DNA of 64,000 bases, taken from the NCBI RefSeq assembly GCF_027942865.1, contig NC_134528.1, positions 29,645,232 through 29,709,231 of the forward strand, written 5' to 3'. Both the position numbers and the translations under genes were made by a program. This document shows positions 21,496 to 36,400 of this stretch, piece after piece. Each line of letters starts with the position of its first letter. Position 1 is the first letter of the stretch. The notes beneath the pieces were generated by a model. That model was given only the letters and a program-made list of their open reading frames with translations, was not told the origin of the DNA and did not search any database. This DNA is from Odontesthes bonariensis. Lineage: Eukaryota; Chordata; Actinopteri; Atheriniformes; Atherinopsidae.

Positions 21496-24400
21496 ATGAG
21501 GAGATGGGCCGTAAAACTCTCAGCGGGTCTCAGCCTTCTGACCATCCTGCTGACCTGCTGTTACGCTGAAGGTGAAGCCCAGAAATCGAGTGTACTGGCA
21601 GCTGATAAACACCAGCGACTCTCTCAGAACACTTACCCAACACAATTTTGTCCTTGTGAAAAGACCACTTTTCATTTTATTCCTGTTTCGTCACAGACTT
21701 TGTCATTCTTTTTCACTTAATTACAAATCATTAATCCGAGTTCTAACTGATATGTTCGCTGTTCATCAGTTAACCCTCTCTTTCAGACTTACACAGACCG
21801 CACATTACAGACAGAATAGGATATTTTTCACAACTGTGGATGTTTGTCTTGAGAAGCTCTCTAGCGCGTCATGCTAAAATGTGTTTAGTGTTACCACAGG
21901 TATTCTAGCTATGCATTGTGGTTTTAATTCTCACTTTATTGCCTTCCTTTGACTGGGACTACAAACCTCCCTTCACTGGGGCCCAACAGAGAACTACTGC
22001 TTCGCTTCGAGGTCCAAAACCTGCTCAGAGTGTGTGCGTGCAGGGAAAGGCTGCGCCTACTGCCCTGATGAGGTGAGAGCAGAAAACTACAGGCCTCTGA
22101 AAGGATGGAAGCCGTCTTTGGTTGCGTATCATGTGCTTGTTTAGCATTTTTGAGCCTCGGATTGCACTCGACCCCTGTGCTAATGTGCACGGTGAGGTGT
22201 GGAGAACGAGTACATTTTTGTCTTGAAAACTGTTCAATTCACTTATCCCACATGGTTTGTTTGGTGATTACCCTGCAGGGATGCAGAACGCACTAATCAA
22301 ACTCCCTGTTCACTCAGAACTTTAACGGACCTCGCTGTGACCTGTACGTGAACATAGTCGCCCACGGCTGCAGTGTGGCGACTGTCATCACAGCTCAAAG
22401 CAGTATGACGATAGACAGAGTAAGTCTTTGTCACTCACACTTGTCTTGTGATCATCAAATCATTTTTCAGCATTAATCTTACCTTTCTCTTGGTAGCATC
22501 AAGCAATCAACACGATGATCCAGCAGTCTCAGGTGTCGCCGCAGGAGGTGACCATGACCTTTCTGCCGGGAGAGGAGAAACTGTTGGATGTGGACGTGTT
22601 TTCTCCAATCACAGGCCCTCTGGATCTTTATATTCTTATGGACTTCTCCAACTCCATGTCTGATGATTTGGACAACTTGAAGAGAATGGGCAACGAGCTA
22701 GGTGGACAAAGTGGCGAAGTGTTGTTATTTCTGTGGAGTCAGCTGTAATACTGACGGCAAATGTTTTCTCTCCCATAGCTACGCTGGTGAGGAACCTGTC
22801 AAATGACTACACCATTGGATTTGGAAAATTTGTGGACAAAGTGATTGAGCCCCAGACTGACATGAGACCGGAAAAGTAAGAAAGAAAATATGGCCCAGTG
22901 AAGAAAGTTACTCAGGTGATGAAAGTGTACACGCCTTTTTCTCATTCCCTTTGGTCCATTCTCTTTCTACTTTGTCAGACTTCTGAAGCCGTGGCCAAAC
23001 AGCGACGGTCCCTTCTCTTTTCAAAACGTCATCAAACTGACAAACGATTTGGACGTCTTCACTTCTAAACTCAGCAAGGAGAATATATCTGGTAACCTGG
23101 ACCCCCCTGAAGGAGGGTTTGATGCCATGCTCCAGGCCGCAGTGTGTGGGGTCAGTAAAAATACTAAACACATGTTGCTCTGCAGGACTTTGAGAGGAAA
23201 AACAGCTGGGGTCCATGTTGGTTTTAAGCCCCGGGTCTAAAATCACGGGCAAAACCTCGACTTGCCTATTAACCCTCAATTGAAAATTGAGTAAAACTAT
23301 TCACATGGAAAGAAAAGTTAAGTTGATTAGAAAAGTTGAATAACTGGCATTGCTGAGTCCTTTTATTGATCTTGACTCCATTCCATGTACATGTGACTGT
23401 TTCCGGGTTTTAATCACTAAAGTGGAAACTGAACTGATGTTTGCTTGTCGGCCCCTTTAATGAACCTGCCTGTCAAGTTGCCAAGTGAGGATGTGTTGAA
23501 AGCACCTATAATTAATCTTCTCATACTCAACCAAGTGACAGTATGTAACATTTTTAAGACTTGTCTCGCTCATCGTTGTGGTTTTCAAGCCTGTGACTCG
23601 AATGTTTGGGTCAACGTTAAAGGAATAGTTTTCTCTTTTGACATGAAGCTATATGACATCCCATACTAGCAACATCATTTATGACCATTTGCTTACCCCC
23701 CGCTGCGTCCTGTGAGCCGAGTTCCAGCCTCGTTTTGGTGTTGACGAAGGTAGTCCGGCTAGTTGGCTGGGGCCACAAAAATAAAGCGTTTTGCTTCTCA
23801 AAACAATATGCGTTCACAAAATCGTTCTCCAGGAAAAAGTCAGACCTCACAATCGCTTGGCACTATTTTCTCTCCCTTCGTATCACTACCTGCTGTGTAG
23901 ACTGTGCAGACCGAAGTGCAGAGCGAGCAGTCCCCTGCTTCCGAGCAGCAAACACCGTAACAGGCGCGGCTGTCGGCAAGCGGCAGCAGGCAGTGATACG
24001 AAGGGAGAGAAAATAGGGCCAAGCGATTGTGAGGTCTGACTTTTTCTAGATGGACGATTTTGTGATGCAAATGTATTACTCTTTTGAACGCATATTGTTT
24101 TGAGAAGCAAAACGCTTTATTTTTTTAAACCCCAGCCAACTAGCTGGACTACCTTCGTCAACGCCAAAACAAGGCCGGAACTCGGCTCACAGGACGCAGC
24201 AGGGGGTAAGTCAGTGTTCATAAATGATATTGCTAATATGGGATGTCATACAGCTTCATGTCAAAAGAGGCGAACTATCCCTTTAACATTGGATGCAGGC
24301 AATCGTCAGGTATCAGAAATGTCGCCCTTTAGGAAGTGCCTTAAAGTGCAGTACCACTGTTGTAAAGATGCATCATGTAATCCATTGAAGTTTCAGTTAT

Positions 24401-27400: not shown

Positions 27401-30400
27401 CATCTAAAATTACATTTGGTTTCTTTGAAAGAAAGCTGACATTTAATATATGTATTACGGTAACTGACTTGTAAAGCTTTAGAAATGACTGCCTTACCTT
27501 TTGATAGAAATGTTGTGTTTGAATCTGTTTGTCAGGGAGCTTTTGACAGCTCAGAAAAAAAATAAAACGTATCTCTTCACGAGACATAAGCTAAATCAAT
27601 AAAAGTGTAAAGCAGAAAACTCTTTCCTCTGTTTTCTCAGACCGTGGCTCTTGCGTTATGGGACAGTGTGCATGCACTGAGGGCTGGGAGGGCGATGCCT
27701 GCCAGTGTCCAAAGAGCAATCAGACCTGTCTGGACAGCAAGGGGGTGAGCAGGGCCAATCCTTTCTGCTAAACTAACTGTTTATTGGGATGTTGTTTCAT
27801 GTCAAGTGTGGTATAGTTGGTGCCTGACTGTGTCTTAATGTGTGCCAGGTGGTCTGCGGCGGGCGAGGTAAATGCGTTTGTGGTCGCTGCGAATGTCATT
27901 CGTCTGAGACGCTTCTGACTTCGACCTGTGAGCCAAACCTTCAGGTAAACAGAAATATGTGCATTCTGGCCTCTGATCTCAGAGCATCTTCATCGGCTGA
28001 AATGATCTCAAGGCAGCTTGATTTTTTTTGACCACATCTAGCCTCAATATGTCTGTTTATTCTTGGCTCACCCTCTTCTTGACGTGTGTGTTTCCTGTCC
28101 AGTACCAATTCAGTGTGTGTGAGGACACGAGGGTTTGCGCCCAGTGTCAGGCCTGGAAGACAGGAGAGAACAAGAAGAAAGAGAAGTGTGACACTTGCCC
28201 CTTCAAAGTTGTCATGGTGGATGAACTGAAAGAACGTGAGCAGAGGGATTTCACACTGATCATTTTTTCAGCATCGAAAACACTCTCTGGTTGAGACTAC
28301 AGGAAGAACACCCAGAAAGACTTCTGAACAGTTTCCATGTGTGTGCGTGCGTGTGCTTTCAGAGGAGAAGGTGCTTGGTGCGTGCAGTTTCCGCGATGAG
28401 GAGGACGACTGTACATACCACTACACTGTTGAAACCAATAAAGAGTCGATAGTTGAGATGCTCAAAGAGAAAGGTGAGCTGCAAGATGGATACATAAGAA
28501 TAAGGAAGGTTAAGACATGTACTCAAGTTTTTTCAAGCTAGAATACAGTGAGAGGTATGAAATAAAATCCCACTCACCAGCGTTAGGGAAAGATGTCTTT
28601 AAAACGGGACAATTCCGATCACGAAGCTGGTGAAACGGTATCACAGCAGCTCTAGTTGCATTGGTGTGTGTCTGACTTTGGCGACATTTCTCCGTCCTGT
28701 CAGACTGTCCACCTGCCAGTCTGCTGTGGTTGCTGCCTCTCATCCTCTTCCTCCTGTTGCTGTTGGCACTTCTGCTGCTCTGCTGCTGGAAGTACTGTGC
28801 CTGCTGCACAGCCTGTTGGCAGGTGAGAAACACTCTCACCAGACTCCTAAAAGATTTGATATTTCCAAATCAAGGTTGAATTTATGGCTTCTGTCTTTCT
28901 CTGACACAGAGGTTTCTCGCCCTGCTGCCTTGCTGGAAGAGGGGTAAGACGTTTCTCATGTGACATTTGACTGTACTGCTCTAAATCCCTCCTCCTCCCA
29001 CCAGCGACCACGCGGAATATGAGTCACCTCGTGCTGTCTTTTCTCCAGGTCGGATGGTCGGCTTTAAGGAGGATGAGTATGTGCTGCGTCAGTCTCAGCT
29101 CACCTCAGACCATTTGGACACACCATTGATGAGGACCGGCCCGCTCAAAGGAACTGATGTGGTGCGCTGGAAGGTCACAGATAACGTGCACCGTGGAGCC
29201 AGCCACCCCCAGGCGCTGATAAAGCCAAACCCAAAGGAGATGAGTGAGTCTTTTAAAAAACAGATTCACGTTGTTAAGGACAATGCTTTATCTTTTGAAT
29301 GATGAAACTTTCTCTTTCATCATTTGTAGTTCAGTTCCCGATGTCTCTGCGACTAAACCGGCTGTTCTCTGAGAACCTCTTTCACCCAGAAAGCAGAGAC
29401 GCTGAGCAACTCCGCAAAGAAGTGGCTGATAATGTGAGTGTGGTTTTCATATTTTTGGGCGTGTGTGTGTACAAACAATGAACTGCACCACTAAGGACTG
29501 GATTTGTTCTTCCATCCAGCTTAATGAGGTGTACAAGCAGATTCCTGGGGTACAGAAAGTGCAACAGACATCATTCAGGTAAGAGGTGTTCAAGTGCGCG
29601 TGCTAACATTTCTTAGTTTAAAACGTTTAACGCATGTTCTGTCACAAACTGATACCTTTTTTTTTTTCATAGAATGCAAAGAAACGCAGGAAAAAGGTAA
29701 AAAATCTGACTGATGCAAAACCAGACGTCTGTTTAAGAAGCCCGGAAGTCCCACGTGTCTGACGTCTCTCCCCCTCTTCTCCTCAGGCAGGACTACACCG
29801 TCATGGACACGGTGTTGTCTGCTCCTCGCAGCAGCTACCCAGATATAGTCAAAGTCACTGAGAAGAATGTCCAGTCCGGAAACTTCCATGACCTCAAAGT
29901 GGTGCCAGGCTACTACACTGTAGCCACAGACAGAGGTGTGTGCTAACCGTTTGTGTATTTGAAGGACAAATCTCATCTCTGCCGTACATCTTCATTAAAT
30001 CTGCTCCTCCTCTGCAGAGGCCGCGGGAGCCGTAGAGTTCCAAGAGGGTGTGGAGTCTGTAGACGTTCACGTGCCGCTCTTTGTCAAAGATGAAGACGAC
30101 GACAAGAAGCAGCTGCTGGTGGAGGCCAAAGATGTGCCTCTGGGCATTGCAGAGATCGGAAAACGTTTGGTTAATATCACCATCATCAAAGAGCATGGTG
30201 AGAAACCCCTAACCCCTAACCCTCTACAGGTTGTATACACAGTGTACAACCTGAATCAGAGAAATATTAACTGAGACTGAGGAGGCATGAATAGGGAGCA
30301 GATCTATAGGGCAGTAAATGATTCTCCACCTCCTCTTCTCAGCCACCAGCATCTTCTCATTCCTCCAGCCAGCTTACACGTACAGCAGGCAGGATGCAGT

Positions 30401-33400
30401 GGCCAACATCCCCATCAGCAGAGAGATCATTGAGGATGGACGCACACAGGTCACTTACCGTACACGAGATCTTACAGCCAAGGATAAGAAGGTAAGCTGA
30501 GAACTGCTTTCTTTATTTGGAAGCAGACTGATATTGCTAGATGTCTTGGGATTGGTCCCACAGTGAAAGAGCTCTCAGTGACCGTAGTTGGTTTGTAAGC
30601 AGCATCGTAAAGTCTAAATTCCTTTCCTGTTCTTCCTTACGGGATTTTAGGACTATTTAACTGCAGAGGGAGACCTGTCCTATGGTCTTGGTGAGGTTCA
30701 GAAGATGGTCCCTGTTCCTCTGCTAGAGCTGGGTGAAAAAGACGGCTTGTTAGAAGACAAACAGATCAAACAGTTTGTCATGGACCTCAGTAACCCACGG
30801 CAGGGTGCCAAGCTGGGACGCTACCCAAGAACGACCGTCACCATCATGGACCAACCAGGTGAGTCAATGCAGAAGCGTTTTGGTTCGTTTGTCTCATGGC
30901 CTCACTCCCAGCTGAAGCATTAACGCTAAGGTTGCACCATCCTCTTTTATCCAGAACCAAGTGTGATGATGTTCAAGAAAGGCACCCAAAACTTCAGCAC
31001 ATCAGACCCGCTGTACACCATCCCTGTGGTTCGTACTCGCAACACAGACAGTACCGCCACGGTGAAATATCACACCAAGAAAGCTCAGCGTTTTGAGCTT
31101 TCTGGCCCTCTGAAGTTTGGTCCTGGAGAGACAGAGAAGAATATAGTGATTGACCCGAAAGTATACCCGGGCCCGATCCAGCCAGAAACCTTCCAGCTGG
31201 AGCTGTTTGACCCCAGCAGCAACGCTTCTATCGGAGAGAGGAGAACCACTCTTGTCAATCTCACAGAGGGAGGTGAGACACGTATGAGGAGACTTTCAAA
31301 CATTAAAGGTTTGATAAAACTGCCATGTGATGAGATGCAGTATCTGACACGTGTTTTACTTCCTCCACTTCCTGCAGTTCCAAGATCTCCTGAGAAGTCT
31401 CAGATGCAACAGATGGGCTACGTGAACCAAAAAGCTACCTCCCCTGGAGGTTACCCTCTCACCCCAGAAAACCTCAAGGCCAAAGCAACCGGACCCAGAA
31501 ACATCCGTCTGAACTGGGACCCAGCACCTGGTAACCCCGTGGGATACAAGGTACATCAAATCAACATGTTCACAAACTTTGTCATTTCCATTTCCATGTA
31601 TCTCTCTAACTGAGTCAACTGCTTTCCTGGTGTGTTTTAGGTGAAGTATTGGATCTACGGCGACCCAGAGAAAGATGCTCAGGTGTTAGACGTTAAGACT
31701 CCTCACGCTGAGTTGACCGACCTGTACCCTTACTGTGACTATGAGATGCGAGTGTGTGCCTACAATGTGTTGGGAGATGGCTATGATACCGACATCGTTT
31801 CCTGCCAGACACTGGAGGATGGTAATGATCGTGAATTTAGGAAATTACAAATGAGGAATAAGTCATTTGCTGAGATCAACCTTTTTGCTTACACAGGAAC
31901 AGCTGTGTGTGTAGAACTGCAAATGAATTTATGTGTAGGACCTCTTTGAGCGTCAGTAATGGCCACATCAGTGATTAGGAAACCAAGAGCTGCAACATAA
32001 CTAGAGGAGGTTGCAGCTTTATTGGGAAAACGTAGTTTCAAACAGAACTGACTACCCCCAGTAAATGTTAACGTAGGTTTGAATTAAATCTGTCTTAGTG
32101 GACAAACATGAGACAACAGCACTGACAAGGTCTAGATCAGTTTGAATGAGCAGGCTTTGTGAATGTCTGCTTAAATGATACTGAGTTTAATCCCACAATC
32201 TCTCTGTTTTCCTGCAGGGCCTGGTGAACCTGGTCGACTGGCCTTCAACGTCATCAGTCCAACTGTCACTCAGGTCAGCTGGGCAGAGCCTGCAGAGACC
32301 AACGGCAACATCACAGCATACGAGGTCATCTACACACCTATCGACGATGAACTGAGTAAGAGATCCACCTAAAAATGGCCATATCTGGTTGTTAGTTGGT
32401 CAGATTCCATCCCATGCTAATGCTCGTCTCCTCACACAGAGCCGGTGGGGGCAGCCAAGAAAGTGATGATTGACAATCCTAAGAAACGAATGCTGCTGAT
32501 AGAGAACCTCCAGAGCGCCCAAACGTATCAGTACAAAGTCCGTGCCAAGAACAGCGTAGGCTGGGGCCCCTTCAGAGACGCCACCATCAACTTGGCATCG
32601 CAGCCCACCAGACCCCTGTCGAGTAAGGCTGCGATGAACACGTCCCCGAAGCGCTCCCTGTTCCTTCTGTCCCCCTGAAATGAGATTCAGTCCTCTCTCT
32701 TTCTGTGTCTCCAGTTCCCATCATTCCGGACATCCCTATTGTGGATGCAGAGGCAGGAGATGAGTATGACAGCTACCTGATGTACAGCAATGATGTGCTC
32801 AAGTCCCCAACAAGCTCCAAGACACCCAGTGTCTCTGGTGATGGTGGGTACCCAGAGCCAAAACCACAAGCTACTCATACATGTGACTGCCAGAGTCAGA
32901 GGGTTAGGGTTCGAGCTGTAACAGGGGTTCAGTTGTTCCACGTTTTCATTGCTCCGAGACATCTCTCTGTGTTCTGATATGAATGCGTGTACATGCTGGT
33001 CAAGCATCAGGTTGCTAAGGTTTCTTTTTTCCCAGCACTTTCTATTTTTTCAGGTTTTCTGTGTGACATGTCTGAAGAGGCAGACAATAATACCCCACCT
33101 CACAGTTAACAGGGACAAAAAGAACAGCTGGACCAGCTTTTTTTTGCTGGAAGAGCTCCATCTGGCAAGCATATTTACTTCAGCAACGCCCCAGCCAGGC
33201 AGCAACAAAAATCTGCTTTCAGTGCATCCTCTCATGTATGCAATAGATGTACTTTGCAATCACTAACCGCAGGGTCTTTTTCCATTAAATCTGCTGTGAA
33301 TCTTCTGCTTTTTGCAGCCGTAGTCGCTTTTTTTTTTTTCTTCCACTGGAAGACTGTGCTGGAGCCGATCCTGGCCTTTGAGACTTTTGGACTTGAGTTA

Positions 33401-36400
33401 TATAAATTAAGATAAATTCATTAACGTCATGAACTTGTTAAAGGTTCTTTTTTTTTTTTTTATGTAATGTGTTGTAAAACAAGCACTTCTTCCTTTGACC
33501 TCCATCCACCGCCTGCTTGCTTCTCTCCTGTGACCAAAAAAAATCAAGGCTGGAAATATGTCAAGTTGGTGGGCTCAAACCTGGATCTCCGTACGGTGTC
33601 ATGGAAAAAACAAGTGGAGGTCATCCCCATTCGGCTCAGCACAGACACAGAGGCGAGCTCGGATGAGGCACAACACCCCAGCTACACCCAAACACCCTTG
33701 CCAGGTGAAGACCCCTCCATCAGACTTATCGACAGATAGAGAGACAGGCAGCTAGCATGCCAGCTGTAATGCACGGCCAGCCATGTTCCCAGCAGGACAA
33801 CGTCACTTTCCTGTCATTCACTTTCAGGCTTCCGTCCTTGTCCCTCTTGTCGCCTTGTTGGCACCTTTCCCATGTATTCTCCCACCACCTGCACTGAGAG
33901 GATCGCTGGCATCAACTGCCCGCTTTCAGTTGATGATCGGGGGCAGGCTTTTCCAGGTTCCTGCCTCTGTCTCTACTCTCTCCATCCCAATGGGGAGGCA
34001 CTGATCCGGAGGCAGCTTTTCTGCTGAGTGTAATGGCCTAGATACTGGGATGCAGTATGGAAAAAAAGGGGTTCTCAACCAAATACAGTCTCATTTCTGC
34101 AGGCCAGTTTGAACGTTGACACTTTTGTGTGCATCTTTTGATGAGAAATACCTCATGAAACAGGTTAGCAAAAAGTCACCTCTTCACATTTAGTAGGCTG
34201 CGGATTCACCACAAGGGGGAGCCGTAGAGACAGGCTTGGACACGTTTTTTTTCCTACATGCTAATTCACAGATGTTCAGGCAAAATAAAGTGCAAACTAA
34301 CTGTTATCACTCGTGCCACATGCAGGAATTAAGTGCACGCCTAAACGAGATCAATAAGATTTTGTCCAAAGCGTTTGGCTCGCGTGATGCCACCCTTGAA
34401 TTTTTGGTTTTTAAAACTTCATCAGACAGAAAGATCTCCACCACTGGGTGGATTTCCACTCTATCACAAATGTACGGAGCCCAGCTGGTGCCACCAGGAG
34501 AAAAAAAAAAACGTCTGTGCGGATTCTTTTTTTTTTCTCCTGGTGGCACCAGCTGCTCCGTACCAATGAAACCATCATATGTTTTTTTTGTTTTTGTTTA
34601 ATGATGAAATTGATTTAGGGGAAGGGGTTTACTTCACCCACTTGTGGCCAAAAGCATTGCAAAAACAAACTACTGGTCCCTTTTGTAAATGCAAAAAAAC
34701 TTTATTTTTTTTCAGCTTACAAAGATTGTACCTTAAAGGGATAGTTCGCCTCTTTTGACATGAAGCTGTATGACATCCCATACTAGCAATATTATTTATG
34801 AACATTTTCTTACCTCCCGCTGTGAGCAGAGTTCCAGTCTTGTTTTGGCGTTGACGAAGGTAGTCCGGCTAGTTCGCTGGGGTTACAAAAATAAAGCGTT
34901 TTGCTTCTCAAAACAATATGCGTTCAAAAGAGTAATACATTTGCATCACAAAATCGTTCATCCATAAAAAGTCAGACCTCACAATTGCTTGGCACTATTT
35001 TCTCTCCCTTCGTATTACTGCCTGCTGTGTAGACCGTGCAGACCGAGCACTAAACACCGTAACAGGCGCAGCTGTCGGCAGGCGGCAGCAGGCAGTGATG
35101 CGAAGGGAGAGAAAATAGAGCCAAGCGATTGTGAGGTCTGACTTTTTCCTGCACAACGATTTTGTGATTTAAAATGCTTTATTTTTTAAGCCCCAGCCAA
35201 CTAGCCGGACTACTTTCGTCAACGCCAAAACGAGGCTGGAACTCTGCTCACAGAACGCAGCGGGGGGTAAGAAGATGTTCATAAATAATATTGATAGTAT
35301 GGGATGTCATACAGCTTCATGTCAAAAGAGGCAAACTATCCCTTTAATATCTTTCCCACCTGCTCACATCTTAGAAAGTCAGTAGAAGGTGTTTATACAC
35401 AGAAAAAGCTTCGACACAGCAAGAAGAAGAACTTTCTGAGCTTGTTTCTGTTTTTATAAGGGGCGTAAGGAGTGCTGATCCGGCATGTCTGAAACAGCTG
35501 ACTGTAGACCGGCTGAGGCTGGTTTCAGGCGCTGTGATCACTGTAAGGACAAACAAATGCGCTCTGCTGGTTTTTCACCATCCTGCCTCTCATTGCCGTG
35601 TTTCACAGATTACATGATGAACGGGAAGTGGGAGCAGAACTTCCTTTTCCCGGGGGGATCACTGACACGCAACTTGTCAGCTTCATCCTCTCCCATGTCC
35701 ACTCTGAGCTCCAACTACAGAGGAGCAGGCGGCTCCATGTCCACAGAGACCACCAACACTTACTTGACAGGACACGGTAAGATGGACACCAGGCATTGCG
35801 CGGAGGAAAAGTCGGAGAAGATCACAAGGTCTCATGCACGTGTACGCTTTGTCTTTGACTCTTGGCGCAGGCGGCTCTCATAGAAAGGAGATGATGGGAG
35901 GCGGAGTGCACACAACTGAAGTCATCATGAGGAAGCGTTCAGAGAACAGAGGCTACACAGATGAAAACATCCGGGACTCCATCGTCATGACCGACGTGTC
36001 GAGCAAGTTCCCAGATCTGGGTAGGTTTCCAGCCGAGGTCGCCTCTCTGGCCTGAAGACAGATTTTACTTTGGAATGCAATATTTAAGATGCCTCGGCAG
36101 GTATACTGTGCAAGCGCATGAAAGTGATGGCTTGGACATCTGTTAGCAGGGCTGGGGGCTGGCTGCACAGCAGGCTTCTCCACACAGACTCTGCAGGAGC
36201 TATGCTGACTATCGCTCTCCCCCCCACCCCCTTATTTCTTATTTTTTTCCCCTTTTCTTTTATTCTCCTTGCTCACTTGGCTCCCTACCTGCCCCCCCTC
36301 TCCCTCGTGCTGTCTCCTTCCCGCCCCCCCCCTGCTCAATGCGCCATCAGGTGGGTTCGGCTACGCTGGGATGCAGAGCAGCTCTCAGAGCCAGTTCAGC

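What the first reader, a model, noticed from the sequence alone, without database searches (positions are those of the whole stretch)
30955..31272. Second Calx-beta-like domain encoded by one symmetric exon of itgb4
The exon of 318 nt (106 codons) begins and ends in phase 1, the pattern of a cassette module. Its product has the Calx-beta layout: [20 protein letters not shown], then [16 protein letters not shown], then [17 protein letters not shown]. It directly follows the ordinary Calx-beta domain (30343-30858). From memory, mammalian ITGB4 passes from a single Calx-beta to FNIII-1 with a short linker. A tandem Calx-beta would alter the spacing of the plectin-binding region and explains much of the roughly 170 extra residues.
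Basis: partly seen in the sequence, partly recalled or inferred. Interest (0 to 1): 0.72.

Follow-up and report, generated by a model that had tools for sequence, protein, structure and literature searches.

The report
Second Calx-beta-like domain in integrin beta4
In this animal (probably a fish) the integrin that fastens skin cells to the layer beneath carries an extra, old and divergent copy of its Calx-beta domain, encoded by one in-frame exon that the human protein appears to lack, which would lengthen the arm holding its plectin-binding part.

Summary
The exon at 30955-31272 (318 nt, phase 1 at both ends, AG/GT borders) lies between the Calx-beta exons (30343-30491, 30651-30858) and the first FnIII exons of an apparently single-copy itgb4. 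It looks coding: 0 of 1642 intronic windows score as high. Its 106 residues are homologous to Calx-beta: Pfam 22.4 bits, E 1.3e-4, below the 27-bit cut-off; hhalign with a profile that leaves it out 93.7%, E 1.9e-7, against 0.1% for an FnIII control; alignment with the neighbouring Calx-beta z 11.5, 0 of 2000 shuffles. A single-sequence fold is a beta sandwich that cannot name the fold. Human ITGB4 chains match only the first Calx-beta and FnIII-1; roughly 23 residues lie between them in human, 135 here. None of nine calcium-ligand positions of NCX CBD1 is kept. Likeliest: an old tandem duplicate serving as a calcium-independent spacer or docking module before the plectin-binding FnIII-1,2. 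The tree does not date it. No other vertebrate genome and no RNA data were available. New variant of a known kind, modest interest.

The parts
30955..31272 (+). itgb4 exon, 318 nt, phase 1-1, encoding a second, divergent Calx-beta-like domain (106 residues)
   Evidence: splice borders and phases; coding character; Pfam; pairwise; profiles; single-sequence fold
30343..30491 (+). itgb4 exon, phase 1-0, N-terminal part of the ordinary Calx-beta domain
30651..30858 (+). itgb4 exon, phase 0-1, C-terminal part of the ordinary Calx-beta domain
31378..31550 (+). itgb4 exon, phase 1-0: linker of about 28 residues and start of FnIII-1
31641..31821 (+). itgb4 exon, phase 0-1: rest of FnIII-1
30018..30197 (+). 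itgb4 exon, phase 1-1, upstream of Calx-beta 1; looks loosely like the back half of a Calx-beta but is not supported as one

Best explanation
The exon is a genuine itgb4 coding exon for a second Calx-beta-like domain, an old tandem duplicate of the neighbouring Calx-beta of the same gene (shown: homology, frame, coding character; inferred: origin by internal duplication). It keeps none of the nine acidic positions that hold calcium in NCX CBD1, so it most likely works as a calcium-independent structural module that lengthens or reorients the stalk between the membrane and the plectin-binding FnIII-1,2 pair, or as an extra docking surface in the hemidesmosome plaque (inferred). Because it is flanked by phase-1 introns, skipping it would leave the frame intact and give a human-like domain order (frame shown; use of such skipping not shown).
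For: Frame and splice borders. Codon statistics, 0 of 1642 intron windows as high. Pfam Calx-beta 22.4 bits for the exon alone, and 77.6 bits for the 403-residue region against 57.1 for Calx-beta 1 alone. Local alignment with Calx-beta 1 score 79, z 11.5, 0 of 2000 shuffles. hmmsearch with an ITGB4-only profile (this genome's Calx-beta 1 and the human one) 20.0 bits; of 5000 shuffles 3946 were listed with a score, best 6.5, the rest not listed; with an NCX-only profile 6.3 bits, best of 3974 listed shuffles 5.7. hhalign with a profile that leaves the exon out 93.7%, E 1.9e-7 against FnIII-1 0.1%; human Calx-beta as positive control 99.4%. Best pairwise scores are with the ITGB4 Calx-beta, 79 here and 67 human, against 37 to 55 for five NCX domains or part-domains of the same genome (named NCX by NCBIfam, below its whole-protein cut-off as expected of fragments). 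Single-sequence AlphaFold model, pLDDT 71, six strands. Human ITGB4 chains match only Calx-beta 1 and FnIII-1.
Confidence: 0.82

Rival explanations
1. The domain was imported by exon shuffling from another Calx-beta gene (NCX, FRAS/FREM, ADGRV1) rather than duplicated in place.
For: The exon is a phase 1-1 cassette, and it also aligns above chance with 4 of the 5 NCX domains or part-domains tried (0 or 1 of 1000 shuffles as high; the fifth 32 of 1000). The tree does not exclude it.
Against: Its best pairwise scores are with the ITGB4 Calx-beta of this genome (79) and human (67), against 37 to 55 for the NCX domains; the ITGB4-only profile scores 20.0 bits and the NCX-only one 6.3. Calx-beta domains of other genes (FRAS/FREM, ADGRV1; names recalled) were not compared.
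Confidence: 0.12
2. The exon is a gain peculiar to this lineage and arose recently, so it says little about vertebrate ITGB4 in general.
For: Human ITGB4 lacks it (with the positions in PMC4030831). No other vertebrate could be examined.
Against: It is no closer to this animal's Calx-beta 1 than to the human one: where the two differ it agrees with this genome's copy at 4 columns and with the human at 5; three tree shapes are equally likely (AU p 0.56, 0.48, 0.37), and its branch is very long, 2.65 substitutions per site in the free tree. Published zebrafish ITB4 is 1893 residues, against 1752 to 1835 in the six tetrapods of the table passage seen (human 1822, mouse 1818, horse 1752, opossum 1778, chicken 1818, frog 1835; PMC4030831 Table 1), which fits but does not prove a wider presence in fish.
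Confidence: 0.15
3. It is a pseudo-exon or an exon rarely included in mRNA.
For: No transcript data could be consulted.
Against: Open frame, both splice borders, phase match with its neighbours and codon usage like the other itgb4 exons.
Confidence: 0.05

Closest known systems
Calx-beta domain of human integrin beta4 (PDB 3fq4, 3fso, 3h6a)
   Same: Homologous domain of the same protein; this genome's Calx-beta 1 is 53 of 116 aligned residues identical to it
   Different: One such domain is described in human; the second domain here is 26 of 103 identical to it, is one exon where Calx-beta 1 is two, and has a shorter loop where Calx-beta 1 has [15 protein letters not shown]
Calcium-binding Calx-beta pair CBD1-CBD2 of the Na/Ca exchanger (SLC8)
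   Same: Two Calx-beta domains in tandem in a cytoplasmic region (recalled; both are in the solved chain 3us9, which matches twice)
   Different: In the three NCX CBD1 copies taken from this genome 9 of 9 ligand positions are acidic; in the second domain here 0 of 9 keep the NCX residue, two being gaps and one Glu for Asp (the ligand list is recalled, not from a call)

Membership tests
Pfam Calx-beta (PF03160) | Profile score at or above the curated cut-off of 27 bits for the domain alone | tested here: not met
   22.4 bits, E 1.3e-4; it is therefore called Calx-beta-like, homologous to the family, not a certified Pfam hit
Calx-beta superfamily by homology | Similarity to known Calx-beta domains beyond composition, along the whole domain | tested here: met
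   z 11.5, 0 of 2000 shuffles; 20.0 bits against best listed shuffle 6.5; hhalign E 1.9e-7 over 98 columns, FnIII-1 control 0.61
Calx-beta superfamily by homology | Seven-stranded beta sandwich of the Calx-beta type | tested here: inconclusive
Calcium-binding Calx-beta (NCX CBD1 type) | Acidic calcium ligands at nine positions (list recalled) | tested here: not met
   0 of 9 kept in the second domain (two gaps, one Glu for Asp), 4 of 9 in Calx-beta 1, 9 of 9 in three NCX copies; the loop is gapped, so single positions are uncertain
Integrin beta4 (ITGB4) gene | Integrin beta VWA, EGF, then cytoplasmic Calx-beta and FnIII repeats | tested here: met
   In order along the + strand: Integrin_beta above its cut-off, EGF_integrin below its cut-off (23.9 of 27), Calx-beta and FnIII-1 above theirs, and 3 of 5 later fn3 pieces above the cut-off; one piece chosen for the membrane span gave nothing. 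Best PDB matches are integrin beta4

The most novel reading that the evidence does not exclude
The tandem Calx-beta is the ancestral jawed-vertebrate state of ITGB4 and was lost by clean removal of one phase 1-1 exon on the line to mammals, so that fish hemidesmosomes place plectin at a different distance from the membrane; in animals that keep the exon, in-frame skipping could switch between the long and the human-like form.
Probability: 0.25. Interest if true: 0.5.

Novelty: new variant of a known kind. Interest (0 to 1): 0.33.

Why it matters
ITGB4's cytoplasmic tail is described as one Calx-beta and four FnIII domains (PMC4452579 and PMC4388270, passages seen). A second Calx-beta would mean that this plan is not general among vertebrates, would warn against carrying residue spacing from human ITGB4 to a fish model of blistering disease, and offers a natural experiment on what the Calx-beta of ITGB4 is for.

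Tried and rejected
A third, still more degenerate Calx-beta just upstream (exons 29791 to 30197): it looks like the back half of one, but Pfam gives nothing at E up to 10; pairwise z is only 2.4 to 3.2; shuffles score as high in 108 of 4768 listed (combined profile), 264 of 4689 (ITGB4 profile) and 953 of 4819 (NCX profile); hhalign gives 1.2%. Not claimed.

The rotavirus VP4 matches of the exon (E 0.096 and 0.32) cover about 30 residues around GPGET and are taken as chance.

The fold comparison shows no Calx-beta chain among the 50 entries listed; on a single-sequence model of middling confidence this says little either way.

The hhalign result is circular (its profile holds pieces of Calx-beta 1) and is not used.

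Dating by tree is unresolved. No second itgb4 was found in this genome for a rate test: the FnIII-2 exon matches itself, a later FnIII of the same gene, and one weak place on another contig with E 0.077, 12 candidates scored. The 106-residue exon has one match only, itself, but that search scored a single candidate and did not report even Calx-beta 1, so it is not sensitive to diverged copies.

From their listings and from passages of three papers (PMC4030831, PMC4452579, PMC4388270) I saw no mention of a second Calx-beta in ITGB4. No paper was read whole, and the library is open-access only. The identifier that I recalled for the crystal-structure paper of the human ITGB4 Calx-beta is not held.

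Full report
What is there. On the + strand it holds itgb4: pieces match Integrin_beta, EGF_integrin (below its cut-off), Calx-beta and fn3 in that order, and the best solved relatives are integrin beta4 chains. The exons around the finding are 30018-30197 (phase 1-1), 30343-30491 (1-0), 30651-30858 (0-1), 30955-31272 (1-1), 31378-31550 (1-0) and 31641-31821 (0-1), all six with AG/GT borders and one open frame through the joined sequence.

Is the exon real? Its in-frame codon score (0.325) lies within the range of the 16 other itgb4 coding pieces (0.225 to 0.642, in sample) and above all 1642 intronic windows of the same length (best 0.118); the other five frames score below zero. The training pieces did not include the exon. 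Openness by itself would be expected in about 1% of intronic stretches. No transcript data were available.

Has the human protein one? The human chains 3fq4 and 1qg3 match residues 60-178 and 314-401 of the joined region, so 135 residues (179-313) lie between the two matches here. Published positions in the human protein are a Calx-beta motif at 991-1054 and FN3 from 1128 (PMC4030831, passage). If 991 falls at the start of the crystal chain's match, that match ends near 1105 and about 23 residues remain in human. So there is no room for a counterpart, and the exon accounts for 106 of roughly 112 extra residues in this interval. The same table gives ITB4 as 1822 residues in human, 1818 in mouse, 1752 in horse, 1778 in opossum, 1818 in chicken, 1835 in frog and 1893 in zebrafish, compatible with the exon being present in other fish but not a test of it.

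Where did it come from? Its best pairwise scores are with the ITGB4 Calx-beta (79 own, 67 human), above five NCX domains or part-domains of the same genome (37 to 55) (their best NCBIfam match is the sodium/calcium exchanger model in 5 of 5), which favours duplication within the gene. It is equally far from the own copy (25 of 105 identical) and the human copy (26 of 103); where those two differ it sides with the own copy 4 times and the human 5 times, and three tree shapes are indistinguishable (AU p 0.56, 0.48, 0.37), with a branch of 2.65 substitutions per site. A recent duplication in this lineage is therefore unlikely; an event near or before the split of fish and land vertebrates, with later loss in the line to mammals, is open. 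Calx-beta 1 is two exons and the second domain one, so an intron was probably lost or gained since.

How does it likely work? At nine positions that bind calcium in NCX CBD1 (list recalled), three NCX copies of this genome have 9 of 9 acidic residues, Calx-beta 1 keeps 4, and the second domain 0 (two gaps, one Glu for Asp; the loop alignment is gapped). I infer a calcium-independent module. In mammals plectin's actin-binding domain binds FnIII-1,2 and part of the connecting segment (PMC4388270, PMC4452579, passages). An added sandwich just before FnIII-1 would lengthen or reorient the tether, or add a docking surface. This step is inference. The phase 1-1 borders mean that skipping would yield an in-frame, human-like order; whether that happens is untested.

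Verdict. It is a new variant of a known domain architecture, possibly shared with other fish and possibly already visible in public annotation that I could not consult. In the listings of eight searches of the open-access library I saw no mention of it.

Noticed in passing
window 29791-30197: The two exons before Calx-beta 1 encode a stretch that resembles the back half of a Calx-beta by eye ([18 protein letters not shown]...[18 protein letters not shown]) but does not pass the profile tests.
   Followed up: yes
window 23633-24289 and 34733-35350: Two copies (direct-repeat blocks 89 to 93% alike) of an interspersed element of roughly 650 bases with internal inverted repeats, 11 kb apart, between exons of itgb4.
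   Followed up: partly
G000 contig C28, own genome: itgb4 appears single-copy: the FnIII-2 exon matches only itself, a later FnIII of the same gene and one weak place with E 0.077.
   Followed up: partly
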